Shown here in pieces: positions 13,732 to 51,900 of a DNA stretch of 64,000 nt. The notes under the pieces were generated by a model. That model had not been told where the DNA came from. It made no database searches and saw only the letters and a program-made list of their open reading frames with translations. Each line of letters opens with the position of its first letter. Position 1 is the stretch's first letter. A program made the position numbers and the translations under genes. The stretch covers positions 18,042,001 through 18,106,000 of the forward strand of contig OX579639.1 in the NCBI GenBank assembly GCA_951230915.1. Direction: 5' to 3'. This DNA comes from Antitrichia curtipendula (taxonomy: Eukaryota; Streptophyta; Bryopsida; Hypnales; Leucodontaceae).

Positions 13732-16700
13732 CTACTCTTTTGAGGTGATGACTAACAAGCCAAGAGCTCCAATTAAAAAGTACTGCACAGAGAAACAACA
13801 GTTGCACCATTAGGAAACCAGAACACAGTTTCAACAAATTCATTGACTAAAAAGCACAGATTCGGAAACTCATCCACCCAAGGTTCAGCTCCACAGCATT
13901 CACTCATGAAAAACTGGCAAGCTCGATGAGGGACATCAAATTCATGACTAAGAGGAAAATGCCAAGAGCAGAAAGAAACATAAAATTCACCTTGATGTAG
14001 GGCTTCTCTGTCATTATAATGGTAACCCATCCAACATAAGGTAGAAACCTGCAGACAAATATTTCCAACTTTAAGCCTTCAATAAACTGCTTGACATTAA
14101 AAAAGTCCATGTTCGGTAAGAACTCAGAAAATTAGAGTGTATAATAGGGGATGCAACGAATAGTTCAACAACTCACCCAACTGCTCGCCCCATAATGTGA
14201 TGCCGTTGTAGCCATAATTGGTTTTGAGCATAAAGAAGGCGATCATCACCGGTGTTGTTGTCTCCTGCGGAATCAACACAATTTACAAACCCTCTTTCAG
14301 TATATCACACTTGGGGCAAAGTAAACTTCTTCTAAAGCACAGTCAGACCTTGAGAAATTCATTCTCGAATACATAACCTGAATTGTCGTATGGGTATGTA
14401 CTCACAACTGCAACAAGGAAAGACAATCCTAGAGCAGTTTATAAAATCATACCTTTTGTGAGAACCTCAAAATCCCCCTTCTCAATGTTCTCATGCACCT
14501 GCAATGATACGCCGAGTCACTTTATCAACAACAGCCATGGAGTATGGACTTCAATAAAAATTTCCACTGCACTGATGCTTCAACATTGTTCTCCAGTAGA
14601 GTCCAGCTGAAGAATGTGTTCAAAATGCAGTAATAATCCGACAAGAAAGCCGGCAGATCAATCGATTGATGCAAACCAAAGAAAGTAATAGTAATAGATA
14701 TCAGTGCTCCCAAAATGCAAGACATCAATTTATGCATACTGGGAACCCTACAGGTCACACAGCCACATGCAAAGTATGAGACATGCTCACCTTGATCACT
14801 CTATGCACAATTGGTATTTCCCGCCCCTGCAAAGTTGTACCAAACATAATTTTGCATGACAACCATCAGATAGGATTTTAGTGCCATGACTGCATTTCTT
14901 TATTTCATTGTTACGCATTTATGGATCTCCAAGCTGGTCTTTAACCCTAACGCATACTCGTGAGAAACCGTTGGAACGTTGCCTCAATTCCAACCAGAAC
15001 TGTGCATGTTGCAGCTGACCACAAAAAACCACAAGCTTAGCATCGGTTGTAAACTCACTTCAACGTGGAAAACCACGATTTCTCCAGCTCGAATTGGTGC
15101 TTTCCCCATGTGAAGAAAGAGGATATCTCCCTATGAACCATGAAAAAACAAGTAAGTTCAATATCTGAAAACAACTCTAGGGCTAAAAATGTATAGAAAA
15201 TAGTATCTAAGGGCAGTCTGAAGGCTTCGAATTCTGATTCCGCAACATACTTAGAGGCCCAAAATTGAGTAAAATCCCCAAACTGTCACCTACAACCTGT
15301 TTAGAGTGTTTAAGGTCAGAAAAACCATGAAAGACTGTCAGATTAGATGCATACCCTTCTAAAACCAGGCTCCATACTGCCTGACAGCACAACAACGACA
15401 GGAGATTCACTCCCCGTGAAGCACATTAGCCCTTTCCATATGATCAAAGCTGACGTCACGATCATTCCTGAAAGTCGATAATCAAACCACCTCACGATTA
15501 CTTAATCAAATCCGTTACTGAGCTTTCAAAATATCAGGAAGAATATGACCCGAACAAAATTCTTCACGACCACGAAAATCTAGATAGCAATAATAATACC
15601 CTATATACAATTGAAGAGCTACAAAACACATCATCACAAATTACGAAGGCATCTAACCAGAGCCCACACTAGGCCTCCGGACTGACTCAAAACAAAAGTT
15701 CGATCCGATTCATCCACTTGCAACAGAGTCCATCACCTCGAGGTACCCCAAAATGTGCATCGCAAAGGAAACAATACCTCTCTTCAACGATTTGCAAATA
15801 CTTCGAAGCAAAACCCTAATCCACATCACCAATTGGAACACGATAAAAACAAGCAAGCTACCAAATTCGTTACTGTGCTTTCAAAACATCGAGAAGCACA
15901 AGATTCAGACAAATCCTGTACTAAAATGAAAATCTCGATAGAAATAACGCCATAAATCCAATTTAAGAGCTACAGGGCAAGTCATTAGGCCCCGCACAAA
16001 AAGCTCAACCCGATTCGTCCACCTTTGCAACAGAGTCCATCAGCCCGAGCTACCTCTAAATTAAAATCGCACACGTAAAACCTCCTGACAATTTCCAATG
16101 AAATCCTAATCCACATCACCAATCGGAACGCGGAAAGAACAATCAAGCAACCAAATCCTCCCCTCAGTTTTCTAAACATCAGGAATCACACAATCCACGC
16201 ACATTTCTTCACTAAAACAAAAATCTAGATAGAATCATAGCACATTATACAAATCCACGAGCTACAACAAAGACAACATCCAACCAAAATTCCACACTAG
16301 ACCACCGCGCTAACTCAAAACAACACCCGATCCATCCACCTATAATGCAAATCGCACATGAAACCAAATCCATTCCTCAGCTTTCAAACATCAGCCAGCA
16401 CACAATCCAGACACAATTCCATCACCCTGAGCTACCCTCAAACGCGAATCGCACACAATATGCCCCCAATTGCAACCACTCCCAACCATTTTGAGTAAAA
16501 CCCTAACCCGCATCCAAATTGCAACACGGAACAAACAACCAAGTAACCAAATCCGTCCTCAGCTTTCAAAACACCAGGAAGCACACAATCCACACACAAT
16601 TCCATCACCCCGACATAACCCCAAAACACAAATCGCACACGAAACACCCCCCATTGCAACCATTCCCACCGATTTCGATTAAAACCCTAATTCAAAGAGC

Positions 16701-16800
16701 TAGCAAGCAAAAGAGACATACCGAGACTGATGGCCTGCAATGCCATGTGGCGAATGTTGGTGGCCTTGATGGCCGCGACGGTGTCGCCATAGCCACCCAT
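13732..16800 (-). CDS. SEC11: Signal peptidase complex catalytic subunit SEC11
   Basis: ER membrane serine protease that removes signal peptides from secretory proteins. Eight exons on the minus strand: 16800-16722, 15467-15355, 15130-15059, 14826-14791, 14498-14453, 14264-14177, 14048-13991 and 13782-13732, all with GT-AG introns and matching phases. They sum to 543 nt, 180 aa, the usual plant length. Residues about 20-50 include the N-terminal membrane segment ([13 protein letters not shown]). SGSMEPG holds the catalytic Ser (S57), [10 protein letters not shown] the His (H96), and KGDNNTGDD the Asp region (117-123). [15 protein letters not shown] and a hydrophobic tail ending VITSKE close the protein. 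The ATG at 16800 is the first after an in-frame stop and gives the family N-terminus. Intron 1 (1254 bp) is filled by a diverged tandem array. Family identity is near certain and all key residues are present. Confidence 0.95.
15500..16720 (-). repeat. Tandem array in SEC11 intron 1, about five units
   Basis: The landmark GCTTTCAAAACATCAGGA (plus strand) recurs, diverged, near 15.52, 15.87, 16.17, 16.38 and 16.56 kb, giving units of roughly 180-360 bp. Neighbouring words recur with it, such as CCAAATCC, AAAACCCTAA and GAGCTACMMAA. On the gene's sense strand four of the five units contain GGATTTG shortly after the landmark, and the fifth has GAATTTG. Short frames across the array are not genes. 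Confidence 0.75.
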
Positions 16801-17195
16801 TGCGTGATGCCTGATGCGCTCGCGATTCTCCTTCTCGTCCTTGTTGTGTGCACAAGCAGCTGCGGAGCTTCACGACGATGAGCTGATGAGTGCTGATGGC
16901 TGTGCTGGAGAGTCTGATCAAGTTTCCGTCTGGTAGTCGCCGTCCGGGGGAGGTGGTCTCCGTCCGATGGTCTGTGGGATTTGGGACGAAGTCCGGGGTT
17001 GCAGGGGGGGAATATGTCACGGGCTCTGTATCGTCCTATCACGTGTTTTCAGAACGTGACATGTCGGAGTTGTCCAATCATATGACTAAAAAGTCCCATC
17101 AAGGACTCTTGGGGATTGATCCATTAAAGTCTTGCATTAGTCTATGAGAGATTTTTTTTAATAAATGAGATTTGGGTTACATCAGGTCGAATTGA

Positions 17196-17599
17196 GGCCA
17201 CTTCACACCATGGCCCAAAGTCAAAAGGCCGTGGATTTTCACCAATCAAATTTCAAGAAACCGAGAGTTCAGGCTCTCGATCTTTCACACTAAAGGACAT
17301 AAGTCCAAAGGCCATTGCCCTCCAAGTACCTACATGGCAATGGACTCTCAAAGGAAGTTTGGATTAGCTAGAAAATCCAAATTATGGTTGAAAGACCGTT
17401 GACTTATGACAAAATCTCAACCATTAAATTGATACAGGTTAGGATTTTGGACTTGGTCTTTGGAAGCTTCACACTATGGCTAGCCGAAGGCTCCAACATT
17501 TTCTTTCCTATTTATTGTTGGTTTCTTCGAACTCTCAACAAAGTTTGTCCACTCAATCCCACGGCCTCTTAGCTTAGATGGCCATAGTGTGAAGTGGCC
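17196..17599. mobile_element. Inverted-end element GGCCACTTCACAC
   Basis: GGCCACTTCACACCATGGCC at left and its diverged inverse GGCCATAGTGTGAAGTGGCC at right. The similarity extends inward to an AGGCCGTGG-type block, about 42 bp in all. A third partial copy of the end (CTTCACACTATGGC) lies inside near 17.47 kb. No clear target duplication and no coding capacity. Confidence 0.6.
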
Positions 17600-17639
17600 C
17601 TTAGTGGTTACAAGCAATGTCTTTGATGAAGGTGGTGGA

Positions 17640-17970: not shown

Positions 17971-18119
17971 CATAGGCTAGTTTACTTTATGTATTTTATA
18001 AAATATATGCACAAAAGTTAGGTCAAACCTCCTTGCACCTAGAATTGATCAAATTTTGTATGAAAGACAAAACAACTCAAAATTCAGTATGGAAGTGTGA
18101 ACTAGTTGCAAGAAGAGAA

Positions 18120-18635: not shown

Positions 18636-18639
18636 AGAT

Positions 18640-20900: not shown

Positions 20901-20939
20901 TTTGTTAATACGAATGCTCAGAATTTTTTATTTTTTGGG

Positions 20940-21299
20940 CTTGGTCCCCCATAATTTCCAGAGTTCCCCGTTGGCACTTTCCAGTGGCAAATGGGCACTG
21001 CACCTGGCGTGCCAATTTCGCAGTTCAATAGGGAGGCTCCCCGTTGACGTCCTAGTTGGTGGCGCCAATGCAGCCTCTCCATCACTCAATCGCAGCCCTC
21101 GGCGGAGCTCCGCGGTGCGAGAGGTCTCGCAAGCCCCACGCTGGCTCCCCTTCTCCATCGCTTGCTGCCTTCGTGCGCACATCAAACAAACCCTAACGCA
21201 ACGCCCTTACGCCATTCCCTCCTCCTCCCCTTCGCCGGCCTGTCCGCTATGTTCATGGTGTAGCGCGCACGGCCACCTCCGTTGCTCATCCTCCACCAG
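20940..21299 (+). other. Probable 5'UTR exon of the DUF3067 gene
   Basis: GC-rich, CpG-rich block ending in CTCCACCAG before a good donor, GTACGTCT, at 21300. If spliced to the acceptor at 23078 the reading frame through this block meets a TGA at once, so it cannot be an N-terminal extension of the protein and is read as 5' untranslated. An AAACCCTAA telobox lies at about 21.19 kb. The exact transcription start is unknown. Confidence 0.45.
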
Positions 21300-21310
21300 G
21301 TACGTCTCTT

Positions 21311-22810
21311 TTCATGTCGCCTTTGGCCGCGCGCGCAGGCATCAAATTCATCTTTATTCGGAACTCCTCATGTGAGAATTGGCACTGGTAACTTGCGAAT
21401 TTTCCGCGGTTGAGGATTTTGTACGTTTAGATTGAGTTTTGAAAATGCTCCTGTGGAAATCTTTTTTGTGATTGGACATGAGAAAGGAGAACGGTTGTTG
21501 TTCAGTAGGAGCTTGAATTAAAATCTGGTGACAATAACGAATGAATTGCCCGAAGCGAAGAGACTGCCCGAGGCGCACCGAGGCTTTCTATAAGATGTGA
21601 CTTCATGTCGTCTTTGGCTGCGCGCACACGCATCAAATTCATCTCTGTTTTTAACTCCTCATGTGAGAATTGGCACTGGTAAGCTTGCGAATTCCGCGGT
21701 TGAGGATTTTGTACGTTTGGACTGAGTTTTGGAAATACTCCTGTGAACATCTTTTTTCTGGCTGGACATTGAGCAAGGACAACGGTCGTTGTTCAGTAGG
21801 ATCTAGGATTGAAATTTGGTGAAAATAAAAAATTTACTGCTCGAAGCGCATCGAGGCTTTCTATATGATGTGATTTCATGTCGCTTGCACAGGCGTTAAA
21901 AATTCAACTCTGTGTTTACTCTGCATGTTCTGGTAGCTTGCGAACTCCGCGTTTGAGGATTTTGTACGTTTACATTGAGTTTTGGAATGCTCCTGTGTAT
22001 ATCTGGGTGGACTTCGAGCGCTTATGAGGAAGGGCAACAGTTGTTGTTCAGTGAGTAGGATCTTGGATTGAAATCTGGTGACTATAACGTATTAACTGCC
22101 TGAAGTGCACCGAGGCTTTCTATATGATATGGTTTCATGTCGCTTTTGATCGCGCGCACAGGCATTAAATTCATCTCTACTTGTAACTCCTCATGTCATA
22201 ATCGGCACTGGTCGCTTGCGAATTGCGCGTTTGAGGATTTGTACGTTTACATTGAGTTTTGGAATGCTTCTGTGGAAATCTTTTTCTGGCGGGACATGAG
22301 GAAGGACAACGTTTGTTGTTCAGTAGGATCTAGGATTTAAATTTGGTGACAATGACGAATGAACTGCCCGAAACGCACCGATGCTTTCTATATGATGCGA
22401 TTTCATGTCGCCTTTGGCTGTGCGCACAGGCATCAAATTTTCTCTGTGTTTACTCTTCATGTCACAATTGGCACTGGTAGCTTGGGAAATCCGCGTTTGA
22501 GGACTTTGTACGTTTGGATTGAGTTTTAAAATGCTCCGTTGGTAGAACTTGTGGCTAAGAAACTTCAGAGGCCGGAGGTGATGAGTCGTATTATCCCATA
22601 ATTGGCAGCGCTTGAGGATTCGTGCGACTAGTGTATGGCACGATTTGAGTTTTAGAAATTTTTCTCTTGTTGTCTTTTGCTGGCTCGACATTTGGAGGTT
22701 CGTGTTATTCAGCGGAATCTTGGATTTAAATTTTGCGACAAGAATGAATGCATTGAGCGCACCGAGACTTTGTTATAGGATGTCATTTTAGTAGTGCTGG
22801 CGGTGATTTT
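21311..22810 (+). repeat. Tandem array in the DUF3067 5' intron, five units plus a remnant
   Basis: Units start TTCATGTCG at about 21311, 21602, 21876, 22134 and 22403. TACGTTT words in them lie at 21422, 21712, 21965, 22242 and 22509, giving spacings of 290, 253, 277 and 267 bp. Each unit has GCACTGGT, TTGAGGATTTTGTACGTTT and a CGAAGCGCACCGAGGC-like word. A sixth, decayed unit reaches about 22.81 kb. The array begins about 10 bp after the splice donor. Confidence 0.85.
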
Positions 22811-23111
22811 GTAGGCCAGGAAACTTCAGAGGCGAGAGCTTCGGCATTAGTTGTTGTTTTTCTCTGAAGGTGGGAGCTCACAAATGGCAAAGCGGTGCAG
22901 GATAAAGAATTTGCTTCCTGCCTGCTTTCATTGTCGCGTCGAAATGGAGTGTCGAAGCGCACGAAGCGCACCAATATGTAATTTCATTTCAGTAGAACTT
23001 GTGGTAGCTGGTTTCGTTGTCCTGTTGAAATGGAGTGTCGAACTGGATGAAGCTCATGTTTTTCGCTCTGTTTGACAGGTGATACTTTCACTCCACGACC
23101 TGGTAGAACAG

Positions 23112-24795
23112 ATGGCAACTTCCCTGACTGTGTCTTCAAAATTTACCATTACTTCCTATAGATCCGAAGTTTTTGGAGATTGCGGCAATGTGAAACAGGG
23201 AAAGCATGCCAAGAAAAATGTATCATTGTCAAATTCTTTGTTAGGATCAGGAATGTCTCGACATCGCCATGTACATAATCGTGTTGAGAAGAAAGGGCCT
23301 TCTCCATGCCAGGCTCTGTTCGGATGGAATGCTCCTAATGATGAGGATGACGCGGAAGATGACTCAAGCGACGATGACTCGAATAACAACGTAACTCCCT
23401 CTTTTCCATCCTGTTGTGCTTCATGTCAGCTCGGAGCACATTCTTGCTGCTGCTTGATATCAGTATTGGATGTTGCAACACTCGGGTGTTGAGATGATTT
23501 CCAAGGTCGACCCCACAGCTGTCTTCCGGGAGTTGTACTGACCTTGATTTTGTCATAAGCAAATTGTGGTCAACTTTTAATAGAATTACCCATTTTCCGG
23601 TCCACTTCATATAAAGTTTTTTTGGCAGTCATTTGCCATACTTGACATTGCCATTTGCGCTTACACGTGATTTTTGTCTTTTCATTCAGGTAGGCTCAGA
23701 GGCTTTCCGGGAACAAATGGAACGAATGGTAAACGTCAATAACAGTGATGATGTCTCTTTTCGAGGAATAGATTTGGCTACAATCATAAGAAAGAAATAC
23801 GGGAGATCTTATGATGTGCAATTTATTAAGAAAGTGAGTACACGACCTACGCTTTTGACATGTAACAGTAAACCGTTCGCCTATAGAGTGCAATAAGTTG
23901 TGAAGTTGGATTTCTTTCGAGGACAGACAACACTCAACAGACCTAACAAACACTCCCTCTTTATTTACGCAGGAATTCATGGGGCGCCAGCTCTTAGCTA
24001 TGAACGTGATGTGGAAGTATCGCGAGCAGGTAACAAGCAATATCTAAAGTGTTCTTCCGTTTATCCGTTTCTTGTAAGTTGCAGGGGAGGTGGAGCTTTG
24101 TTTCTTAGTGGTCGATTTAGTATAATTTACTCACTATGAAGAAAAATCTCAGAACGATTCCTAGTTGCAACTTTACAAATATGTCTGTTATTGGCAACGA
24201 TACCTGCTGCTTCTAGTTGCCAGTTCTCTATCATGTTTGGAATATTCAGAAAGTGAGGTGTGATTTGAAATCACTGCTGCATCATCACGTGGCTGTACTT
24301 ACTTCGTTTCCTCTTCACCTCAGCGCTCCTTTCCTTTAACAGAGGAGGAATACCTTCTACACCTAGATGACATTGCCAACAATTTGAGATGCTGGGGAGC
24401 TGTCGGTCTTGTCCGCAACAGTCTGGAGAAGACCAAAGAACGACCCCGTATTGGCAAGGCAAGCTATTGAATCACAAATATTCCAACCTCTTTGGTCATG
24501 TCAACTGAGTCTTCTTTTATTATCACGTGATGCGTTACCATGCTGTTTCCAGTAGCCTCGCCCCGTATCGAGAGAAGGTAGAAAAACTTGTTCCAAAGGG
24601 TTCAGTATGAATAAGTTCATCAATCTTCATAACCTAAGTCCTTATAGGACGTTGGTTTATCTTCTGGTGAGAGATATTGCGTTAGTAATCCTAGCTCTGT
24701 CGGAGGCTAATACCCGACTTTCCTTGCAGGCTGTGAGCATATTCATTAACCTAGACGAATCTGGAGGAAGAGCGAGAGAGTGGATAAACAGGTGA
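23112..24795 (+). CDS. DUF3067 family protein, probably plastid-targeted
   Basis: Five coding exons: 23112-23390, 23690-23833, 23973-24029, 24324-24458 and 24730-24795. They total 681 nt and encode 226 aa. All junctions keep phase 0. The C-terminal half (about 115-226) matches the DUF3067 family of cyanobacteria and photosynthetic eukaryotes. Visible landmarks are KKYGRSYDVQF, NVMWKYREQRSFPLTEEEY, the spacing LDDIANNLRCWG, RERPR-type KERPRIGKAVSI, and GGRAREWI near the end. The N-terminus is rich in Ser and Thr with few acids (MATSLTVSSKFTITSYRS), as expected of a chloroplast transit peptide. It is followed by a basic linker and an acidic run (about residues 77-93). The ATG at 23112 is the first in the exon opened by the acceptor at 23078. 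The biochemical function of DUF3067 is not known to me. The last intron is GC-AG. Confidence 0.88.
24459..24729 (+). other. GC-AG intron in the DUF3067 gene
   Basis: The exon ends GGCAAG and the intron opens GCAAGC, closing with CCTTGCAG. No GT in the right place would join the conserved RPRIGK to AVSIF without breaking the frame. AAG/GCAAG is the usual form of the rare GC-AG class handled by the major spliceosome. Confidence 0.8.
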
Positions 24796-25470: not shown

Positions 25471-25475
25471 GTGAG

Positions 25476-29076: not shown

Positions 29077-30443
29077 ATGGCACTGCAAATCACTCCTCTC
29101 ACGAAAGCCTTCGGCGCCATAGTGGACGGCATATCACTAGCGGACCAACTGCAGCCAGACCAAGAAAAAGCCATCAACGACGCCTTGCTCCAGTACCAGG
29201 TAAGAAAAGTGGGCAATTCTCTGTTGAAATGGAAAAAAACGTGTGCAGCAGTACACAACCAGTGTCAAAAAGACCAGGACTAGCAAAATGAGCGCTTGCT
29301 CACTTCATTTACGCAATTTGAAAACTTGGCTATGGTGTTCAGGTGCTCTTCTTCCGCAACCAGTCGATCACTCCCAAGCAACAACACGACTTCGCCAAGC
29401 GCTTCGGCGACTTACACATCCATCCCCTCTACCCAAACTTCGGCCCTGAGCTTGAGGAAATCATGATCCTAGACGCCGACGGAGGTCACCCCGCGGACAA
29501 CGATCGCTGGCACACGGATGTCACCTTCATCGAGACTCCGCCCATGGCCTGCATCCTCAGCGGCAAGCTCATCCCGCCCGTGGGAGGGGATACCATATTC
29601 GCCAGCGGCATCGCAGCCTTTGAAGCACTCTCGAAGCCCTTGCAGGTACTGCACAAATCGCTAGAACAGATCATTCTTGGCTAATGGAGAGCGAAAACAG
29701 CAGCCAATACAGTAGGATTTGCTACATGATTTTGTCAAAATGAGCGAAAGGTGTACCAATTGCTACAATCTACACAATCGTACTTACAGAATCGTATATA
29801 CAGAATCGGCGAATTTTGCTCATTTTGTACATTTTGAAAATATATAAAGAGCATCATTGATTGTCAGCTGCATTACCAGAAAGGGAAATAATTCGTAAAA
29901 ATTCAGGATTCAGGAAGGAATTCCCGGTACCTTACTCTAACTAAATCAATCGAATGGCATGAATACTAAGGAACGCAATAGTGTACATATACATTCGTAC
30001 CTTGTTGCTAATCCACAATTTTGCAGGAATTCCTCCTCAGGCTCCACGCGGAGCACAGCTTCGTCAAGCGATTCTCCGCACCGCGTTACCACTTCTCCGG
30101 TCGGGGCGACCCCACGTCCCTCTGGCAAAACGGCGTGAAGAAGAACCCTCCCGTGGTCCACCCTCTGATTCGTACCCACCCCGTGAGTGGACGGAAGGCG
30201 CTGTTCGTGAGCGAGGCCTTCCTGACTCGGATCGTGGACGTGACGAAAGCCGAGAGCGAGGCTTTGCTCGCGTTCCTATTCGCGCATGCGACCAAGCCGG
30301 AGTTCACATTGCGGTGGAAGTGGCAGAAGGACGACGTTGCGTTTTGGGATAACCGGGTCACGCAGCACTACGGAGTGGCAGATTACCTCCCGCACCGAAG
30401 GGTCATGAACCGCGCCACGATTCTCGGGGACAAACCATTCTAA
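29077..30443 (+). CDS. tauD-like: TauD-like taurine/2-oxoglutarate dioxygenase, copy A
   Basis: Fe(II)/2-oxoglutarate dioxygenase that in bacteria hydroxylates taurine and releases sulfite. Exons 29077-29199, 29343-29645 and 30027-30443 (phase 0, GT-AG) give 280 aa, close to the 283 of Escherichia coli TauD. WHTDVTFIETPP supplies the metal ligands H98 and D100, and WDNRVTQHY the second His (H256). R267 and R271 before ATILGDKPF match the arginines that hold 2-oxoglutarate and sulfonate. H68 and N94 match substrate contacts, so taurine-type specificity is likely. Similarity to the bacterial enzyme runs the whole length and ends at the same DKPF motif. No targeting peptide is visible, so a cytosolic place is expected. 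The introns show it is a resident nuclear gene, and a bacterial origin by transfer is inference. A near-identical paralogue lies 13.7 kb downstream. Confidence 0.93.
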
Positions 30444-30449: not shown

Positions 30450-31090
30450 AGGGAAGCGAGACCTTGAAGGCGTCCGAAAACAAACCCTAATTTCGGGTGA
30501 TGGCGCTTTCGTGGGCAGATTTCAGCAATCCCTGAAGGCGTCCCAGAAAAAACCCTAATTTCGGAGTTAGGCGCTTTGTAGGTCAGACTGTTGCAATCTC
30601 AGAGGCTTGCGACTACAAAACCCTAATTTCTGGCGTTTCGGAGAGAAGAGAAGCATTTATATTACAGACTACTGCAATGTTGGAGGCTCGAGACTACAAG
30701 CCCTAATTTATGGCATTTGGGAGACAAGCCAAGCATTATATAATAGACAACTGGAGCCTTGGAGGCTTGCGAATACAAATCCTAACTTCTGGCATTTCGG
30801 AGAGAAGACGAGAATTTATAGAACAGACTGCTGCATTTCCGAGAAAACGAACCCCAATTTCAGACAAGGCGCTCTCTGTCTAGGACAAACTACTGGTCTA
30901 CTGCAATCTTCAGAGGCTTGTGAATTCAAACCCTAATTTTCGGTATGTCAGAGACAAGACAAGGCTTCAATGGACACACTGCACTGCTGTGAAAACACGA
31001 AAACAAACCCTAATTTCGGGCATGTAGGAGACGAGCCTTTCTGGGACGAACTACAGCAATGCCGAAGGCTGTCGAAACCAAACCCTAATT
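30450..31090 (+). repeat. Telobox minisatellite behind TauD copy A, about nine units
   Basis: AAACCCTAATTTC-like words recur near 30.48, 30.55, 30.62, 30.70, 30.78, 30.85, 30.93, 31.01 and 31.08 kb, a period of about 65-80 bp. Between them lie diverged GGCATTTCGGAGACAAG and CAGACTGCTGCAATC words. The array starts within about 40 bp of the stop codon, so it probably lies in the 3' untranslated region. Confidence 0.8.
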
Positions 31091-34000
31091 GAATGTGTGA
31101 GATTCTCGGTGAAGAAGGTTCAATTAGCATTAGCTTTAAAAGTATGAGCGCTCTTTTAAGTATAATCGTTCAAAATCCTATATGGACCAAAGTGTTGATT
31201 TTCTTACCACATTAGCCTAATTGAATGTTCCTTGAAGATGTCACAAATGTTTTTGGAATGTAAATAATCATTTCTACTCAATAGTAGGATTGGCCGGCTT
31301 TATGAAGAAGCTTTTAATTTCTTTTACAAAAATGTAAAGCAAAGGTTGTAGTTTCATTGTATGTCCGCAAAGTTTATAATATAAACAAACTTTGTCACTT
31401 GATATAGAAGTGCCATAATTCTATTTCATTGCACTTATGAACCTATTTGCATCCAAGGATTATTCATTTAGTCATTTGAAAATGTGTATTTTTGTAGTAA
31501 TTTATTAATTTCATTCATTGTGAAAGCTAGAATGATTGCCAAGTATTCCCTCAATTTTTTTTGTATTATTTTTCAATAAACTTTTGCTAACAAGAGAATC
31601 TTTGCTCTTATGAATAGAAGTTGTATATTAAAGGTAAAAATTAAGAGGATTCAATTGTAAGAACGACTAGCAATAAGGTGTAGCTACCTTAAAATTTATT
31701 TTCATTTGCTGAAAAATCTTTAGTCCTTACTGGTAGGATTTTAGATATAAACTTATTAAACACATGTATAGTAGTAGACTTCTTCGTAATTGCCCAAAAT
31801 CTTCTTTTGGGCCTTGCAAAAAAAAAAGGACAAATGCACTTCACAAGATTACAATTGTATAAAAAAATATCCATTTTGGTGGCGCTTCTTTAGATTCATT
31901 CTTTAAGCCAAATTGGCTACATGCTTAAAAAAATTTTAATCATTTGGAATTATACAACATCTAGGAAAAAAAATAGTAAGTAGAAAGAAGTAGAAAATGA
32001 TTCAAAATACTAAATTGTTAAGAACTCAATTATGGAAATGAAAAATGTCAATTTCAATAGTTGTAATGTTGTAATATACAATCTACATCCTATGAATTTA
32101 TTATTTTCAGAAAGTATTGAAAATTGAGTTGAACAAAGGACTTCAAAGTTTATTTTAGAGTAGAGAATCCATACCTACTTGCAAAGCTAAAACTCCTCAT
32201 AACTTTCATCTCATTAATTAAAATGGAATGATTAAAAGCTTTCCACATATATATAATTCTAAAAAATAATTTCTAATTTTTGTTTCTGAAAAAAATGATT
32301 TTTTTAATCTACCCAAATTGCCATGTTTAAAAAAAATTACATATCATACAATAATGTTTTAATTATGTTGTCAAAGTTATGAAAGTTATCAAAAGAAAAA
32401 ACTTGTCCACATGTTTTCTGAAAATTTCAAAGAAAAAAATAAAAAATCCACTCATAATGAGTTGCCTAAAATTGCTATATTACAAAAAAAGAAAAAGAAA
32501 GAAAGAATGGTCTTTTAGAGGTTAACATTTTGAACTTAAAGAAAAAAAATTCTTGAAAAAATCACAAATATCCAATCTACAACAAATTTTAGAAGGACTT
32601 ATTAATTTTTTACTTCAAATTTTATTGAAAAATATTAGTGTATAAAGTAGTTGATTTTATTGTATGACTATAGATCATATCTTATAACTATTGTTTGAGA
32701 GTTATCATTAAATTATTATTCTAAGTTGCATTTTTTAGTATATCTTCACAATTTAGGAAATTTGGACTACCCCCTTATCCTTAAGGGGTTAAACTTGTTT
32801 GGAGTGATTTCCTCAAGTATGGACCTATTAGTGTGGATGCAAAAAAATTGTCACCTACAAAACTACTCATAGCATTGTATGTATAAAGTAACAACACTAT
32901 AAATGTAATTTTTCTTAATATATTTACACACATAAATTTGCAACGCTTCAAAAATTAACAATTTATTCATTTGTTTTTTCAAAAATACATGCAAAAAAAA
33001 TCTAAAATTCCTTTTAGACTTCAAATAAGATTCAATAAAAATTTATACAATTTAATAATAAAACCAAATCGAACAATTTAAGGTGTAATTATCTTACTAA
33101 TTAGCAAAGATTCACATGACACTATTGTTAGATCCAATTTTATAAGAAAATATTCCTTTGTGTGACTCAAATAAGCAAAGACACTTCATTTTTTTAGTGA
33201 AGAATATGTATTTTTAAATATCTAGATTTTCTTCAATTTAATAAGGACTATTCTACAACTAGAAAATAATACTTTATAATATTACTAAAAAATATTTGTT
33301 TTTGAAAATGAATACAATTTAACAATGTCAGAGTTTACTCCGTACATATTGATTTAAAATAAAGTGAAATTTGGTATAATATTGTCAAACATATTAATGG
33401 AATAACTCAAATTTTCTATAAGTAATTTTCAAAAAATGAATACACTATTATTATCAAATTAATCCCTATAGATTGATGATTATATTTCACTAATAAAACA
33501 TATCAAAATTGAAATTTTTAGTTCATAAATCTGTAGAAGAAAACATTCACTTTTTCAAATTCAATCATAGGATCTTAGGTTAGACTTGTATGGAAAATTT
33601 CAAAAAATTCAACCATGTAGATTGTAAGATATTAGTATTCAAAGAAAAATGAAAAATTTCTTGTTGTACCTTAGTGTTCTAGGTTTTTAGACTTTGAATC
33701 TTGTTAACTTGTTTTTTTCGCACCACAATTTTGGAAATATAATTTTTTACAGTAGAGGATTGAGTTGAAAATCTAGGATGAAATTTTTTCAAAAAATTCA
33801 AATTAATTTCTATTCTTTATGAAATTGTTTAAGAAGAAATAAGTATAATTTGTTAGAAAAAATTATATCATTAGTAATTCTAAATTGGAATTAAATATAT
33901 CAATCCTAACATTGAGATTGTTGTAGTAGGTAACCAACATCCTATGAACATGTTTGTTTTGAAAGATTGTGAAAATTGACAAGTCATTTTTTATAAGTTC

Positions 34001-38499: not shown

Positions 38500-41400
38500 C
38501 AAACACTAAATGTCCATTTGGATGACTTCATCTAAGATTGCATGATGGAAAAAAACATTTTTTGGTACCTATTTTTTGGAAGTTGCTTGAGTACATTTTC
38601 AGTGCATAGAGTGCATAGTATTGCAAAATCTTTCATTATGGTTTTATTGACTTTTATAAAGATGAAAATGCTTGATCCACGTATCACCTTTGTAGTATAT
38701 TTTGATCATTTACTCTCAATATGGCTTTTAATCATAAGTACAATGTTTTTGAAATTGACTGCAACTAGTAAAATAAAGCTTATCAAGAGCAATTTCTACT
38801 CCAATTAGAAATTTTAAAAATTCATTAATTTCAATTGTTTATGGCAATATGATCTCTAAGCCTGTGACCATGGTTTGTTGATTTTCTAAATTTTAAGTGA
38901 CATGATAACTTTGGCTTATACCATGATGTTATATGCTATAATGTACATCTTTGGTGAAATTTTGAGATTTTACAAGTGTATTTTGTGTTTGATAAGAATT
39001 TTCTTTATTTTTTTCTTATAATATTTGTAGTAGCTTCAATTTTTTTCCAAAAATTTGAATGTTATAAATTTATAGTAGATATATGACTTCATCTTTGAAA
39101 AATAAATATAAATATTTTCATTCAAATCAAGTTGCAAAATGATAGCAAACAAAGTGATGCTTAATGATCCTTGAAAGCAAGGACTATCTTTCCAAGACTA
39201 ATTTTATAAAGACATAGGGATCAAACCACATTCAAAGGTACCATTGGGATTACTTTGCTAGGACATGACTTGAGTCCTTTTAAAAACTTTTTAAGCTATA
39301 AATTACTTTAATATTGTCATTTTTATAAATAAAAAAATAGAGATGAATAGTATTGTAATGTGTCCCTTTAATAAGCTGGAGACAAAATTTTATGGAAAAA
39401 ATTCATTAAAAGGACAAAAATTACCTTTTTAAAGGCTAAATTTAGTGTCTTTTTTACAATGTAGCTCTTTAAAAGGATATTTTCATCCAATTTTTTTATA
39501 CTTCTCATGCATAAAATTATGCTTGTAAAACATTCAATTTCAATTATGCTTGAAATTAAACATTCAATTTCAAAAATATTATGCATGAATATATTTTTTG
39601 TTTTGACACAGTCATCAATTGAATTATTTTATATATTGAAAAAGACGTTCATGTATTTTTACTTCTATATATTATAGGAAATGAAAAAATGTCCAAATTG
39701 TAGCAAAATTTTTTTTTCTACTCTATCATATGATTATATACAGACATGGTTTTTTGGATTCAATCACATTATTATATATTAGAAATTTAGCCTCCTTTTT
39801 CTCATTGAAAAACTTGGCAAGTTGACACTTGAACTTCAATTGGAACTTTAGTAAAGAATTTTATTTTATTTTTATGAATAAAAAAATACAAAGCTTAACA
39901 TGACTTGAAGTACTAGTCAAAAATACTAGACTATCTATAATTAAAAAATTAGCTTTAAAAAACAATAGCTAAAAACAAATTATATTGTAGATTTTACTAG
40001 GTTTGACCCCTTTGTGGTACCTCTGAGTGTAATTTGACCTATAGAAGACCTTTTAGATTTGATGGATGACATCATTGCTAACTATAGAAACAAAAAATGC
40101 ACCTACTAGTCCAATAATTAGAGTATTTTGGTGACTACCTTGAGGTATGGCTACACATGGATTTAGCAACCGTTTTTGCTGCAATGGTACGTAACATTAT
40201 AGTAGGTGTTTAAGCAATCATACCTTTGTAATTTGTCAAACCTAGGTGGTTGCAGCGTTGGCAAAGGTTACAATCAATGTTTAATGGAGAAAATTTCCGT
40301 TAGTGTTGCAAGCACCTCCAATGATATGTGATTGATAATCAATTGATTTTTTTAATAGAGTCATAGTGAAATTATTGTAAGTTTAATGTATTAAGATCTC
40401 AACACAAAATTATTACAATTCATATAAAGAGTTTCTTCCCATAAGCATGCAAACTATAACAAATCTATTCAACATTTATAGAACCTTGCTTGTTTGGTAT
40501 TAATCTTTGTCTTTTTCAAACATAGTTCTATCAATTGCTCAATGAAGTCATACCTTGACTACACACAAGAACCATTACAAACAACAAATAAAATGGTTTC
40601 AAAATCCTCCTTAAAATTTATTACTCCCTCTGTCCCAAAATGATCTTATTTTTTGACAAAATGTTCTAGATTATAGCTAAAAATGACATTTAAAAATCCC
40701 ATTGTGCATTGTAAGTAGAGTTTGGTGCACTCCTAGTATCCTAAAGACTTTGAGTTTTAGAGCCTTTTCAAAGTGTAATTTTGAAATATTGAAAAGTGAA
40801 ATTTTTTGGACATTTTCAAAGAGCATCATTATTCATTTAAATTTTGAGTGTGAAGTCATCATTTTGTAAATAGTTAGTATAGGCCCAAGACCATGTATCA
40901 ACCTCTGTTCCACCTCCCAAAGCTTCATCTCCTTCAATTGGACAACACTCCAAAAGATGCAAAAAAATAAGAACAAACAAAGTTGATTGACCCCTTCAAT
41001 CATTTCATTTATCTTTTGATTGATGATTGGATGGATGGGGAACTAGAGCTTAGAGTTGTTTCGCTAGTCCCAAATAGCAATCAAAATCAAAATCTAACCA
41101 ATTCGCAATGTCACAAAGTACAAAAGAAAGATCATTTTGGGACTGAAAATTAAAACCAACAAGAAGATCATTTGGGGATGGAAAGAGTATGAAACAAGTT
41201 ATATATGTCAATTTCCAAGCTTGAGTTTGTTATTGTTGGCCCCAACAGCTTAACCCATAAACAAGCTTAACCAATAAACAACACGAAGGACATTTTCTGG
41301 TCAATGAATGACAATGAATTTCTCTGTGTAGGACAAAATTGCAACTATTCATCCTCCAAATTTTGTGTGAAAAGGGAATGTCTTCTACATTAGTTTGTCT

Positions 41401-41585
41401 TCCAATGAGTGCTTTTTCATTTTCTTAAGCCAACAATTCACACGGTATCCAAACAAATGATTTCCACAGTGACAAGCTCGTTGTCATTTAAGGATTAAGA
41501 TGCACTTGGAGTTGCACAAGTAGAGCAAGATGGAATAAATCATCCAAATCGATCACAAGAATCAGGAGCTGATCTTTTAAGATGA
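38500..41585. other. AT-rich insertion in duplication copy B
   Basis: Missing between the matching blocks of copy A. It contains the Stowaway-like MITE at 40624 and one arm of the TTAA fold-back family at about 41.25-41.47 kb (GTAGGACAAAATTGCAACTA). Otherwise AT-rich with no recognisable gene; frames at 38.5 and 39.4 kb look like chance. Confidence 0.5.
40624..41187. mobile_element. Stowaway/mariner-like MITE with TA target site
   Basis: TA then CTCCCTCTGTCCCAAAATGA at left, and TCATTTGGGGATGGAAAGAG then TA at right. Read inverted, the right end is CTCTTTCCATCCCCAAATGA. CTCCCTCYGTCCC ends with a TA duplication are typical of Stowaway elements mobilised by mariner-like transposases. A second internal copy of the end (GATCATTTTGGGACTG) lies near 41.14 kb. 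No coding capacity. Confidence 0.75.
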
Positions 41586-41619
41586 GTCTTTTGACAAAGT
41601 CTTAGGTGTGGCCATACCT

Positions 41620-42785: not shown

Positions 42786-44398
42786 ATGGCATTGCAAATC
42801 ACTCCTCTCACGAAAGCCTTCGGCGCCACAGTGGACGGCATATCACTAGCGGACCAACTGCAGCCAGACCAAGAAAAAGCTATCAACGACGCCTTGCTCC
42901 AGTACCAGGTAAGAAAATTGGGCAATTCTCTGTTGAAATGGAAAAAAAGTGTGCAGCAGTACACAACCAGTGTCAAAAAGACCAGGACTAGCAAAATGAC
43001 CGCTCGCTCACTTCATTTTCGCTATTGAAAACTTGGCGATGGTGTTCAGGTGCTCTTCTTTCGAAACCAGTCGATCACTCCCAAGCAACAACACGACTTC
43101 GCCAAGCACTTCGGCGACTTGCACATTCATCCCCTCTACCCAAACTTCGGCCCCGAACTTGAGGAAATCATGATCCTAGACGCCGACGGCGGCCATCCCC
43201 CGGACAACGACCACTGGCACACGGATGTCACCTTCATCGAGACTCCGCCAATGGCCAGCATCCTCAGCGGCAAGCTTATCCCGCCCGTGGGAGGGGATAC
43301 CCTATTCGCCAGCGGCATCGCAGCCTTTGAAGCACTCTCCAAGCCCTTGCAGGTACTGCACGAATCGCTAAAACAGAAATTCTTGGTTAATGGAGAGCGA
43401 AAACAGCAACCAATACAGTAGGAATTGCTTGTGTGAAATTCAGGATTCAGGAAACAATTCCCGGTATCTTACTCGTGTATTTAAGTAAATGGCATGAATA
43501 CTAAGGAATGCAATAGAGTTCAGATACAGATACACTCGTACGTTGTTCCTAATACTACACTTTGCTACATTTGGAACTACATAAGAACATCATCCATTGC
43601 CACCCGCTTAATAGTACTGCCAGTTAGCAAATGATTTTGTGAATTTCCATGCACCTTAAGCTCCTGTATAAAACCAAATGGCACGCATAGGAAGGAACGC
43701 AATAGAGTACATACACAATCGTACAATGTTGCTAATTTTGCTAACTTTGTGCATTTTGAATATATATAAATTTTGAAAATATATAAAGAGCATCATTGAT
43801 AGTCAGCTGCACTACCAGAAAGGGAGATAATTCATAAAAATTCAGGATTCACGAACGGATTCACGAACGGATTCACTGTACCTTACTCACTAAATCAAAT
43901 GGCATCAATACTAAGTTAACGAACGCAATAGTGTCAGTACATACACAGTCGTACCTTGTCGCTAATCCAACAATTTTGCAGGAGTTCCTCCTCGGGCTCC
44001 ACGCGGAGCACAGCTTCGTCAAGCAATTCTCCTCACCGCGTTACCACTACTCCGGTCGCGGCGACCCCACGACCCTCTGGCAAAACGCCGTGAAGAAGAA
44101 CCCTCCCGTGGTCCACCCCCTGATTCGCACCCACCCCGTGAGTGGACGGAAGGCGCTGTTCGTGAGCGAGGGCTTCCTCTCTCGCATCGTAGACGTGACG
44201 AAAGCCGAGAGCGAGGCGTTGCTCGGGTTCCTGTTCGCGCATGCGACCAAGCCGGAGTTCACGTTGCGGTGGAAGTGGCAGAAGGACGACGTTGCATTTT
44301 GGGATAACCGGGTCACGCAGCACTACGGCGTGGCGGATTACCTCCCGCACCGGAGGGTCATGAACCGCGCCACGATTCTCGGGGACAAACCGTTCTGA
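42786..44398 (+). CDS. tauD-like: TauD-like taurine/2-oxoglutarate dioxygenase, copy B
   Basis: Exons 42786-42908, 43050-43352 and 43982-44398, with the same phases as copy A, give 280 aa. About 15 residues differ from copy A (roughly 95 % identity). None of the changes hit the iron ligands H98, D100 and H256, the arginines R267 and R271, or H68 and N94. One change (R96 to H) lies just before the WHTD motif and another (A92 to P) just before N94, so a shift in substrate handling is possible but unproven. Exon lengths are identical, while intron 2 is 629 bp against 381 bp because a block was repeated inside it. Both copies look functional. The stop codon is TGA here and TAA in copy A. Confidence 0.93.
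43440..43975 (+). repeat. Repeated blocks in TauD copy B intron 2
   Basis: AATGGCATGAATACTAAGGAA followed by a GCAATAG..TACA..TCGTAC run appears, diverged, near 43.49, 43.68 and 43.90 kb. Copy A has one such block, near 29.95 kb, plus a remnant. This accounts for the extra length of the copy B intron. Confidence 0.65.
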
Positions 44399-44399
44399 G

Positions 44400-44810
44400 T
44401 GGAGAGGGATGCGAGACCTTTCAGGCGTCCGAAAACAAAACCTAATTTCTGGCGTTTCGGAGACAAGAGAAGCATTTATATTACAGACTTCTGCAATCTC
44501 AGAGGCTCGCGAATAGAAACCCTAATTTTTGGCATTTCGGAGACAAGACAAGCGACTGTAGAACAGACTGCTGCGTTTCCGCGAGAACAAACCCCAATTT
44601 CAAGCAAGGCGCACTCTGTGTTTAGGACAAAACTACTGGTCTACTGCAATCTTCAGAGGCTTGTGAATTCAAATCCCTCATTTCTGGTATGTCAGAGACA
44701 AGAAAAGGCTTCAGTGGTCATACTGCACTGCTGCGAAAACACGAAAACAAACCCTAATTTCGGGCATGTAGGAGACGATTCAAAACCAACCCCTGATTGA
44801 AGGCGTGAGA
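44400..44810 (+). repeat. Telobox minisatellite behind TauD copy B, about six units
   Basis: Same 75-bp family as behind copy A, with AAACCCTAATTT-like words near 44.44, 44.52, 44.59, 44.67, 44.75 and 44.79 kb. Two are degraded to CCCTCATTT and CCCCTGATT. Copy A has about nine, so unit number changed after the duplication. Confidence 0.8.
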
Positions 44811-45494: not shown

Positions 45495-47030
45495 CTTGTG
45501 GTTTTGTATTGGTCCCTAAGGTTTCTACTATAGTTGAGAATTTTAAGAAGTTCATCTATTCACAAATCCACCTTCATCCTAGATCCCTTCTTGTTGATGC
45601 ACATTAGAAAACCATTGATTCATCCATCTTTCAAAAATGACTCTTTTTTTCTTCCTTGAAACCTCTCTTTAATTTATCCATGCTTTTGACTTATTTCTAA
45701 AACCACCTTCTACAAATTCAAACCTAAAATGTAGACCTTCATCAAACGTCTACTTGAGAGTCATGGGGGCAATTCGAGATACACACATTTGTAACACTTT
45801 GAAAATTCATTGTATATTCAAACCTTATCCAAAAATACATTCTAAAAGAATCTATAATCCTATTTGACTACTGCCAAGATCTACCAATATTTTTACAAAT
45901 CAAGAATATAAATCATAATTGTATATATATTTATTGTTACTGATTACCTAACATTAATTCCTTAAAAATATGGTGCTACAAAGAAAACCCAAACAAACAA
46001 ACTATTAACCCCTAATCACTACAAAGGCCATATTTTGAATGCTAAACATAATGGTTCAAGGTGATATTTTGTCCAAATACCATCCTATTCATCCGTTCTA
46101 ATGCTAGAATATTAAAAAATATAAAAATCTTCCTTTACGATCAATTTGATGAAATTGAGAGAAAATAAACATATTTGTTTGTAAACAGAAAAGAAAAAAC
46201 GTGCATAAATCCAAAAAAGGTTCCAATATTAAAAAGAACAAAATGCCCAAGGCCTTTTTTGAATTTCTAGAAATTTGCTCTAAACTGAACAAAAAGCCAA
46301 CTTTTTGATAAGTTGTATCAATTTTTTATAAACTATAACCATACAAATTTAAACTAGACATATTTAAGATTGCATAGGAAAAGAAAACACAACATCACTT
46401 ATGGATTGAAAGATTATAATGTTTAATCAAGACGGTGTTAAAACTATAAAAGTGATTTGAAGTCTTTCAATCTTCTTTTCACATGTCAAATCTAAAAAGT
46501 TGGTCACCAAAAAAATATGAGTATAAAGGGCCTAACATGTATAACCCCGATCAATTTATGGCTTCTCAAAATCTATTCTACAATTTTTTTAAATAAATTT
46601 TTAATGTGATTTTTTTTCCAAGATCTAGTGTATTTGAGGCTCATTTCCAAGAGCCTTTAATACTACTGAAAAATCAAGATTGCAATGGACACCCTTGCAC
46701 AACATCTTGAATAGAAAAATCATAATCATTCATTTTGAAAATCGGATTTTTGATGCTAAAACTAGACTTCAAAAATAATCTTTCAAAAAATAATTTAGTA
46801 AGATTTAATTTAACTTCAAAGTTTCTTCGACATCGAGATTTGGTGCCTCGGGGCATTCAAAGGTTAAAGGACAAGGGAGTGACCTTAGAAATCATTGCTT
46901 TTCATTACTGTGTGAATCATCGGCTTAAAAAATAGCAAAAGCATTCATATAAATTACCATAGAAGACCTCTCCTTTTCACAACAAAATTTCAAGGATAAA
47001 TAGTTGTACTTTTTTCCTACATTAGGAAAG
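45495..47030. other. Copy B 3' part, no gene
   Basis: To about 46.22 kb this matches 37.04-37.58 kb of copy A. Beyond that it is AT-rich. At about 46.93-47.03 kb an arm of the TTAA fold-back family appears (AGTTGTACTTTTTTCCTAC, inverted relative to 54.12 kb). Confidence 0.5.
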
Positions 47031-47032
47031 TA

Positions 47033-48425: not shown

Positions 48426-48524
48426 ATGGAGATGGAACTTCGGGTATTATATTGTGCATTTTGATGAAGCCTTGAACTTTGGTGTGAGAGGTGATTGGAG
48501 AGCAAGGTGGGGTGACTCGTGCTC

Positions 48525-48945
48525 CACATTTTGGTGTGAAACCGTGAACAAGCAAATCCTTAGTTCACACCAACCTGAAATTAGGAAAAACAAGAGAGAG
48601 GGGAAGCCCTGCATTTACAGAAGCTACATTTACAATGTGAGGAAGTCTGCGTAGGTCGTTACTCAAAAAGCAAGCTGCAGTGCTACCAAATCCTCTGATA
48701 CCATACCTCCTTGTTTACACTCTCGCAATGCAGTGCCTTGTGATGTGGGATCTTGAACAAGCAGACTCTTAATTCATACTTGTTAATTCATACTTGGTAA
48801 AGGAGGAGCAGGAGAGGGAGCCTTGCATTGCACTGCATTGACAAAAAATACATCTACAGTGATTGTGAGGAATTTTGAGAAGATCGCTACTTAAATAGCG
48901 ACGCAGTGCTACCAAAGGCTCCCACATAGCTTACCTGCTGGTTTA
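48525..48945 (+). repeat. Tandem duplication just ahead of HPAT, two units of about 205 bp
   Basis: GTGAACAAGCAAATCCTTA / TTGAACAAGCAGACTCTTA, then GGAAGCCCTGCATT / GGGAGCCTTGCATT, and GCAGTGCTACCAAA with a CTTGTTTACAC-like word run twice in order. The second unit ends about 40 bp before the start codon, so the array covers the core promoter or 5' untranslated region. Confidence 0.75.
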
Positions 48946-48956
48946 CACATTTGGGG

Positions 48957-48983
48957 GAAAGAGAGAGAGAGACACACACACAA
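48957..48983 (+). repeat. GA/CA microsatellite in the HPAT 5' leader
   Basis: A GA run passes directly into a CA run ending a few bases before the ATG at 48986. GA/CT tracts are common in plant 5' leaders. Confidence 0.8.
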
Positions 48984-48985
48984 AG

Positions 48986-51900
48986 ATGGCGAGGGTGTCG
49001 TTCCCAGTGCTTCTGTTATTTGCCATTACGGCATTTGTGCTCACGTACAACACGATCACCATGGTTAACAGTTACCACCAGACCAAGGACGGGAATCCTA
49101 GCTTGGGGGAAGAAAACAACCACGGCGACAATATCAATGCGAATGCGATGGCGTTCGATCCGTTGGTCAAGATGCCGGAGGAAGTGAAACGAGGGCCCAA
49201 GCGCTTGTTTCACGTGGCGGTCACGGCCAACGACTCGCCCTACAACCGCTGGCAGTGCCGCATCATGTACTACTGGTACAAAAAGTTCAAGGACGAGCCG
49301 GGCTCCGAGATGGGGGGCTTCACTCGGGTCTTGCATTCGGGCAAACCCGATGGGTTCATGGAGGAGATTCCGACCTTTGTGGTGGATCCGCTTCCTGATG
49401 GCGAGGATCGGGTATGCGTGCTTTCGAAATTCCCTCTTCGGGTTGCTCGAACATTATCTGCATTGGTTGCATAAGTGCATAACCTGCGTTGTTGCTATGT
49501 TTTCGTTCTTGAACTCGAGATGTGAGTGGATTTGTGCCGTAGAGGGTTTCTGAGAGTTGGAGCATCCCGGTTGATTTTCTCTTATGCTACCGTTGAACTC
49601 GTTCATATGAACGTACTCGAATGCTTCATAATGTGCTTTTGCACTCTTCTTTTTTTTGGTCTTTGGGCTGCTCGAACATAACCTGCGTGGTTGCAGTGTT
49701 TTCGTTCTTGAGCTTCAGATGTGAGAGGATTTGTGCCTTAGAGGGTTTTTGAGAATTGGAGCATCCCGTTTGATTTTCCCTCATGATACCGCTTTTACCA
49801 TTTTAGAAGAATCGGAGTACGATGAACGTACTCGAATGCTTCATACTGTGCTTTTTCTGTCATTTTCTTTCGTCTTTAATTTGCACAAACATAACCTGTA
49901 TTGTACCAATGTTTTCGTTCTTGCACTTAAGTTTGGAGAGGATTGGTGCCATAGAAGGTTTCTGAGAATTGGAGTATCCCGTCTGGTTTTGCCCCATTCT
50001 TGTTTTCTTTCTCCTTCCCTCTTTGAATTTCACAACCATCACCTACGTTGGTGCAATGTTTTCGTTCTTGCACTTAAGTTGAGAGGATTTGTGCCGTAGA
50101 AGGTTTCTGAGAGTTGGCGCATCCCCTTTGACTTCACCTATGCTCCCGTATGGTCCCGTATTTACCGTTTTAGAAGAGTTGGAGTACTTTGAACCTATTC
50201 TAATTCCTCGTACATTTTTTTTTCTGCCCTTCTGTCTAGTCTTTGGGGTTTCAAAAACATCGCCTGCGTTGTTGCAGTGTTTTCGTTATTGATCTCGAGA
50301 TTTGAGCGGATTTGCGTCATAGATGGTATCTGAGGATTGGAGCATTCCGTTTGGTTTTTCCTTACGCTGCCGTTTTTCCCATTCTAGAAGAATTGGAGTA
50401 CGATGAACGTACGCTAAAGCTTCTCTTACTGTGCCTTTTGTGCCCTTTTATTTTGTCCTTAGGGTGCACAAACATATCCTGCATTGTACCAATGTTTTCA
50501 TTCTTGCACTAAAGTTTGGAGATGATCTGTGCTTGGGAAGATGTCAGAGGATTGAAGCATCTTGGATTCCCTGATTCTCCATTCAAATTAGCAGTTGAGC
50601 GCATGTTGTCTGCAGCTTCTCTTATGAAGTTCCTCCTGGTCCATGATTGTGTGGATATCAATCACATGATTCTGCAATGGCATCCCGTTTCTTTTTAGTA
50701 GTTTTGATCGACACATGCAGTGTTCTTCCCTGATTCCGTTGATATACAATTTGGCTCCGTCTGATGTATAATTTTTTCCAGTATGATCAATTGAGTTCGT
50801 CATTTTAGGGTTCAAGATTGGAGGTTCAGAACTAGGGTTTTTGTTTTCTGTGCAGGGTTACATCGTGTTGAATCGTCCATGGGCATTCGTGCAGTGGCTT
50901 CGAAAGGCAAACATCACAGAAGAGTACGTTCTATCTTTACCTACTATTTGGATCCAATTACAGATGGCTGGTTTGAAATACCTATATTAGATATTGCTGA
51001 GATCCCGTAATTTATGAGGGCATGATTTGGGGGTGGCGTTTTTCAGTTACATTATGATGGCAGAACCGGATCATGTGTTCATACGGCCGCTTCCTAACTT
51101 AGCGACGGAAGACATGCCAGCTGCCTTTAAGTTTTTCTACATCGTTCCCTCGGAACATGAAGAAGTTCTGAGAAAATTCTACCCCAAGGAAAAGGGGCAT
51201 ATTTCCAACATTGACCCCATAGGCAATTCCCCGGTTATTATTAAGAAGGTACTCAAACTCCCCTTCGTTGTTTTATCTTGGCTATATTCTCAACGTTTAG
51301 TACACCATTTACTGTGGACCACAGTAATTACCAGAAACTACTATACTTGTATATTTTCCAGTTTAATGGGGCACGTTTGAAAAGGTATGTAGTAGCTCAC
51401 AACCTTCTTGGTCGTAATTGTTGGGGTTCACATTAGTTAATTTTTTCAACTACTGCAATGGAACCCTACAGTATTCTGAGGAACTGACATCTTCATAAGG
51501 AGTAATTGCTTACTGAATGTGTGTTTGTTTGAGAATTTGCAGAGTCAATTGGAGAAAATAGCACCATCATGGTCAGATGTATCAATCAACATGAAAGATG
51601 ACCCTAAAACTGACAAAGCATTTGGTTGGGTTTTAGAAATGTACGTAAAGTTCCGAACCTGTTTGCTTGTGCCCATTTTGAGAAGCATAATATGATGCTC
51701 ATCACTTCATGTAATATAATTTAACTCAAAATTGGATGATTCTGGTTAAATCATTATTTAGGAATAATGCAGGTCAAATTTCAAGTAGCCAACGGGTTGT
51801 TAATAGATATCACATGCTTGAGCCTCAATTGTTGATAGAAAAATGTTTAGAAGAAAGGAAGATGACTCAAAAATGCGTGAAGTCTTCTTCAAAATGTCCA

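What the first reader, a model, noticed from the sequence alone, without database searches (positions are those of the whole stretch)
15500..50560. Promoter-proximal introns of three unrelated genes each carry a private tandem array sharing a GGATTTG-like core
SEC11 intron 1 (five units, 15.5-16.7 kb, minus strand), the DUF3067 5' intron (five units plus remnant, 21.3-22.8 kb) and HPAT intron 1 (six units, 49.4-50.6 kb) are all tandem arrays with units of about 150-360 bp. The arrays are not homologous to one another, and the later introns of these genes are array-free. On the sense strand most units contain GGATTTG or a close form: SEC11 4 of 5; HPAT GATTTG or GATCTG in 5 of 6; DUF3067 GAGGATTTG once and GAGGATTTTG three times. 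The Arabidopsis intron-mediated-enhancement motif, from memory TTNGATYTG, has the same core and acts from promoter-proximal introns. Inference: local duplication may have multiplied enhancer-like intron modules, as a genome-wide habit.
Basis: partly seen in the sequence, partly recalled or inferred. Interest (0 to 1): 0.75.

Follow-up and report, generated by a model that had tools for sequence, protein, structure and literature searches.

The report
Tandem repeats in moss first introns
Three genes in this moss DNA carry old tandem duplications inside their first introns; the repeats are real, but similar duplications also occur in a late intron and beyond gene ends, and the proposed link to a known plant expression-boosting motif is not borne out, so this looks mostly ordinary.

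Summary
The window is nuclear DNA of a moss related to Ceratodon. The arrays are real: SEC11-like intron 1 has 5 units, the DUF3067 5'UTR intron 5 plus a remnant, HPAT intron 1 has 6, and they are not homologous to one another. Tandem self-similarity covers 66.5% of first-intron bases against 6.4% of later-intron and 6.2% of other bases, yet only 3 of 5 first introns carry an array, the TauD2 last intron has 3 units, and the TauD1 3' flank has 9 short units. GGATTT is the best-shared 6-mer among the arrays, P about 0.04 after allowing for the choice of word. Strict TTNGATYTG occurs in none of the three introns and GATC lies below shuffled means; a 2024 study saw no clear GATC effect in Physcomitrium patens. 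Conservation around the word is unremarkable once its selection is corrected for (P 0.27). Best reading: local tandem duplications tolerated in long first introns; a G/T-rich sense-strand element remains possible but unproven. The genome-wide test could not be run.

The parts
15468..16721 (-). Intron 1 of a SEC11-like signal peptidase gene; array of 5 units at about 15490-16694
   Evidence: Exons join to a 180-aa ORF; self-alignment and unit HMM; Pfam Peptidase_S24 hit, Peptidase_S26 just under its cut-off
21300..23078 (+). 5'UTR intron of a DUF3067 gene; 5 units at 21311-22549 plus remnant 22607-22783
   Evidence: Unit HMM, alignment; start codon agrees with the Ceratodon protein; Pfam DUF3067
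49412..50855 (+). Intron 1 of an HPAT gene; 6 units at 49457-50575
   Evidence: Unit HMM, alignment, Pfam HPAT, 371-aa ORF
43353..43981 (+). Control: last intron (intron 3) of TauD2 with 3 units (43443-43561, 43645-43741, 43857-43974), no GATYTG
30468..31102 (+). Control: 9 matches (37-75 bp) of one repeat beyond the TauD1 stop codon; six AAACCCTAA words in the flank
44431..44778 (+). Control: 4 matches of a repeat beyond the TauD2 stop codon
48606..48947 (+). Control: 2-copy duplication, offset 224 bp, upstream of the HPAT start codon

Best explanation
These are minisatellite-like arrays born by repeated local tandem duplication (strand slippage, unequal exchange or synthesis-dependent repair) inside first introns of a moss. 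They persist because a long first intron tolerates added length as long as the splice sites, which lie outside the arrays, stay intact. The GGATTTG-like word was one of the words in each founding unit, in G/T-rich or T-rich sense-strand intron DNA, and was copied with the unit. Shown: the arrays, their lack of mutual homology, arrays and duplications elsewhere in the window, and a difference in unit number between the TauD paralogues. Inferred: the duplication mechanism and the lack of function of copy number.
For: No homology between arrays (nhmmer; consensus alignments P 0.93, 0.08, 0.33). TauD paralogues differ in last-intron matches, 3 against 1 (direction of change not determined). A 9-unit array lies in a 3' flank, and 2-3-copy duplications lie at about 8, 11.5, 18, 36.5, 48.6 and 54.3 kb. 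By self-alignment the arrays begin at intron base 11 (DUF3067), 32 (SEC11) and 67 (HPAT) and end 35 or more bases before the acceptor; the outermost HMM match, in SEC11, ends 22 bases before it. None of 16 units folds unusually (z -1.3 to +1.4), and no Rfam family reaches its cut-off in the window. Invariant columns do not cluster into blocks once truncated units are handled (P 0.06-0.48).
Against: Arrays are concentrated in first introns by coverage (66.5% against about 6%); as introns 3 of 5 against 1 of 20, P 0.016, though 3 of 5 against 1 of 4 among introns of 300 bases or more, P 0.36. GGATTT sharing remains at P 0.036-0.043 after look-elsewhere correction; the number of 6-mers present in at least 2 units of every array is 15 against 6.6 expected, P 0.004; GATYTG per unit joint P is 0.005. 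A neutral account needs a reason for the concentration: tolerance of length, open chromatin, or easier detection in GC-richer DNA.
Confidence: 0.66

Rival explanations
1. Intron-mediated enhancement by multiplied modules: each unit carries a GATYTG-type element that raises transcription from downstream of the start, and duplication raised the dose.
For: GATYTG in 5/5, 1/5 and 5/6 units, joint P 0.005; 18 sense to 2 antisense in the five first introns; copy number of TTNGATYTG acts linearly in Arabidopsis (PMC6760150, abstract and passages).
Against: Strict TTNGATYTG in 0 of 3 introns; GATC counts 2, 4, 4 against means 5.3, 7.5, 6.8; DUF3067 GATYTG not enriched; four other enhancement words not enriched, CGATT borderline in SEC11 only; no clear GATC effect in Physcomitrium patens (PMC11525189 section 11); the only strict match among the 25 introns is in TauD2 intron 1, which has no array. 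All three arrays reach more than 1.2 kb past the start codon or donor; in Arabidopsis the effect was still substantial at +1095 but absent at 1800 nt or more (passages).
Confidence: 0.14
2. A moss-specific downstream element with core GGATTT(T)G, different from the flowering-plant GATC motif, sits in promoter-proximal introns and has been multiplied.
For: GGATTT is the only 6-mer found in at least 4 units of each array, exceeds shuffles in each intron (8 against 1.9, 6 against 1.4, 4 against 1.1), and is 19 sense to 1 antisense in first introns against 3 to 1 in later introns.
Against: Look-elsewhere P 0.036-0.043; conservation after selection correction P 0.27; 17 of the 19 sense copies lie inside the arrays and are not independent; the two array-free first introns have 1 GGATTT in 744 bp.
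Confidence: 0.1
3. Intronic non-coding RNA clusters (snoRNA-like) or structured RNA repeated in tandem.
For: Tandem intronic units of 130-360 bases are a plausible size, and plant introns are recalled to host snoRNA clusters.
Against: No Rfam match at gathering cut-off in the whole window; three matches in the array introns with E 0.24, 0.53 and 4.3, all far below their cut-offs; no unusual folding.
Confidence: 0.02

Closest known systems
Intronic minisatellite / tandem duplication (VNTR-like arrays)
   Same: Head-to-tail units private to one locus; unit number differs between the TauD paralogues
   Different: Units are long (about 130-360 bp) and old (57-86% identity between units)
Intron-mediated enhancement motif TTNGATYTG of Arabidopsis (PMC6760150)
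   Same: GATTTG core on the sense strand of promoter-proximal introns in SEC11 and HPAT
   Different: Strict motif absent from the three introns because the 5' TT is missing; GATT rather than the GATC of the most active tested version; DUF3067 mostly GATTTTG
Downstream GATC motif YVGATCBR (PMC11525189)
   Same: Position downstream of the presumed start of transcription
   Different: 2, 0 and 0 matches in the three introns, P 0.125 or more; no clear effect reported in Physcomitrium patens

Membership tests
Intron-mediated-enhancement motif introns | Strict motif TTNGATYTG over-represented | tested here: not met
   0 of 3 introns, shuffled means 0.51, 0.32, 0.37
Intron-mediated-enhancement motif introns | GATYTG core enriched | tested here: inconclusive
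   SEC11 P 0.010, HPAT 0.022, DUF3067 0.77; unit-level joint P 0.005
Intron-mediated-enhancement motif introns | Dose-dependent rise of mRNA from within about 1 kb of the start | not testable with these tools
   No expression data
Downstream GATC motif (YVGATCBR) | Motif over-represented just downstream of the start | tested here: not met
   2, 0, 0 matches, P 0.125, 1, 1; GATC below shuffled mean in 3 of 3
Intronic tandem-duplication arrays | Head-to-tail units alignable within a locus | tested here: met
Intronic tandem-duplication arrays | Copy-number variation between individuals or relatives | tested here: inconclusive
   Seen for the TauD paralogue pair only; no second moss genome was reachable
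Intronic snoRNA cluster | Match to a snoRNA family | tested here: not met

The most novel reading that the evidence does not exclude
Mosses, which lack a clear GATC effect, use a different sense-strand GGATTT(T)G element in promoter-proximal introns, and tandem duplication of intron modules acts as an evolutionary dial for transcription of housekeeping genes.
Probability: 0.09. Interest if true: 0.65.

Novelty: new member of a known kind. Interest (0 to 1): 0.25.

Why it matters
If copy number of intron modules tuned expression, mosses would offer natural dose series for a mechanism known mainly from engineered Arabidopsis introns. As it stands, the case shows that tandem intron arrays inflate motif counts, so motif enrichment must be tested with the array, not the unit, as the independent observation.

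Tried and rejected
snoRNA or structured RNA: disfavoured. Common origin of the three arrays: not seen. tRNA: none found (bacterial settings). Conserved-block evidence for constraint: one search gave strong autocorrelation for DUF3067 and HPAT and a joint motif-conservation P of 0.0023, but identity had been divided by all rows although end units are truncated; redone the autocorrelations are P 0.06-0.48 and the joint P 0.0041-0.0105, and with correction for picking the most shared word P is 0.27 (261 of 400 null runs could be scored). Literature: nine answered searches of the held library; in the titles and abstract openings listed I saw no report of tandem arrays in moss first introns, which says nothing of papers not held or not listed.

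Full report
What the window is. The HPAT protein is 83% identical to a Ceratodon purpureus protein and 78% to a Sphagnum one, and the DUF3067 protein matches Ceratodon best (83% over its whole length; 87% in the alignment). The two Ceratodon loci are KC19_6G140600 and KC19_6G140100, so the window is probably syntenic with a stretch of Ceratodon chromosome 6 (inferred from the locus names). It is a moss but, at these identities, not Ceratodon purpureus itself. The name SEC11 is recalled: Pfam gives Peptidase_S24 above and Peptidase_S26 just below the curated cut-off.

Observation. All three gene models splice to intact reading frames. For DUF3067 the start codon lies in exon 2 and agrees with the Ceratodon protein, so its array intron is in the 5'UTR; no transcripts were available. 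Self-alignment, unit alignments and unit HMMs searched against the whole window give 5, 5 plus a remnant, and 6 units. No HMM hits another array at E up to 10, and consensus-to-consensus alignments are no better than shuffles (P 0.93, 0.08, 0.33). Pairwise unit identities are 58-78% in SEC11, 81-86% in DUF3067 and 57-78% in HPAT, so the arrays look old.

Position. I measured tandem self-similarity (offset 60-700 bases, blastn E up to 1e-4) over the window: 3474 of 5221 first-intron bases, 354 of 5495 later-intron bases, 0 of 4735 exon bases, 3019 of 48549 other bases. As introns, 3 of 5 first introns and 1 of 20 later introns are arrays (P 0.016), but among introns of at least 300 bases it is 3 of 5 and 1 of 4 (P 0.36). 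Two of the five first introns belong to one paralogue pair, and arrays themselves lengthen introns, so neither number is clean. The 'other' class includes any gene I did not annotate, and DUF3067 exon 1 was set at 21000-21299 arbitrarily.

Counter-examples. TauD2 carries three units in its last intron, 43353-43981; its paralogue TauD1 matches the same model once, and by eye may keep a remnant of another unit, so gain and loss cannot be told apart. The TauD2 array intron contains no GATYTG and no GGATTT, so array-making and motif come apart. Beyond the TauD1 stop codon nine matches of a short repeat lie at 30468-31102, and four beyond TauD2 at 44431-44778. Two- or three-copy duplications lie at about 8, 11.5, 18, 36.5, 48.6 and 54.3 kb.

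Motif. Against 1000 dinucleotide shuffles, GATYTG is 8 against 3.0 in SEC11 (P 0.010), 6 against 2.2 in HPAT (P 0.022), 2 against 2.7 in DUF3067 (P 0.77); GGATTT is 8 against 1.9, 4 against 1.1 (P 0.019) and 6 against 1.4 (P 0.004) in the same order; TTNGATYTG is 0 in all three; GATC is below the mean in all three. Because units are copies of each other, I shuffled the unit consensus and carried the alignment columns along: GATYTG is then in 5/5, 5/6 and 1/5 units (SEC11, HPAT, DUF3067) with joint P 0.005, and GGATTT(T)G in 5/5, 4/6 and 4/5, joint P under 0.0005. The second word was chosen from these data. Asking instead how often any 6-mer is shared as well among three such arrays gives P 0.036 and 0.043. 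Sharing of 6-mers at a lower level is also raised: 15 are in at least 2 units of each array against 6.6 expected, P 0.004, while for 7-mers it is 1 against 0.33, P 0.25. The word is better conserved among units than most windows (percentiles 0.98, 0.75, 0.85 for SEC11, DUF3067, HPAT), but top shared words in the null often are too (P 0.27). In the five first introns GGATTT is 19 sense to 1 antisense and in the 20 later introns 3 to 1, yet 17 of the 19 lie inside the arrays. SEC11 and DUF3067 first introns are skewed to G and T, HPAT to T. Of the first-intron words named in PMC8157754 (passages) I tested GATTCG, AGATCG, ARATCGA, TTTCGA and CGATT: none is enriched, CGATT in SEC11 being borderline at P 0.052; KCGAGAR and ACYCYRA were not tested.

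Literature. In Arabidopsis, TTNGATYTG acts linearly with copy number up to at least 20 and only near the start of transcription, and TTAGATCTG was the most active tested version (PMC6760150, abstract and passages). [quoted passage not shown] So the flowering-plant motif is a weak precedent for a moss.

Judgement. The arrays are real and enriched in first introns here; the motif coincidence is mildly better than chance; function is unshown. The simplest account is local duplication tolerated in long first introns.

Noticed in passing
30468-31102 and 44431-44778: 3' flanks of two TauD-family dioxygenase paralogues carry tandem repeats with the telo-box-like word AAACCCTAA (6 in the TauD1 flank, 2 in the TauD2 flank; the name telo-box is recalled).
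   Followed up: partly
29646-30026 and 43353-43981: Last intron of the TauD pair differs in the number of matches to a roughly 120-bp repeated stretch (1 against 3, spaced about 200 bp in TauD2), a natural pair for array gain or loss.
   Followed up: partly
15468-16721 and 50800-50855: TAGGGTT occurs 3 times on the sense strand of SEC11 intron 1 and twice in HPAT intron 1, there near the acceptor as read.
   Followed up: no
24459-24729: DUF3067 intron 5 has a GC-AG donor/acceptor pair.
   Followed up: no
54059-54612, 41267-41467, 46879-47021: Dispersed repeat in both orientations, with an inverted pair of about 200-bp arms at 54059-54266 and 54404-54612, like a foldback element.
   Followed up: no
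5657-6099: AT-rich 141-bp duplication at 302-bp offset with 92% identity, the highest among the near direct duplications listed.
   Followed up: no
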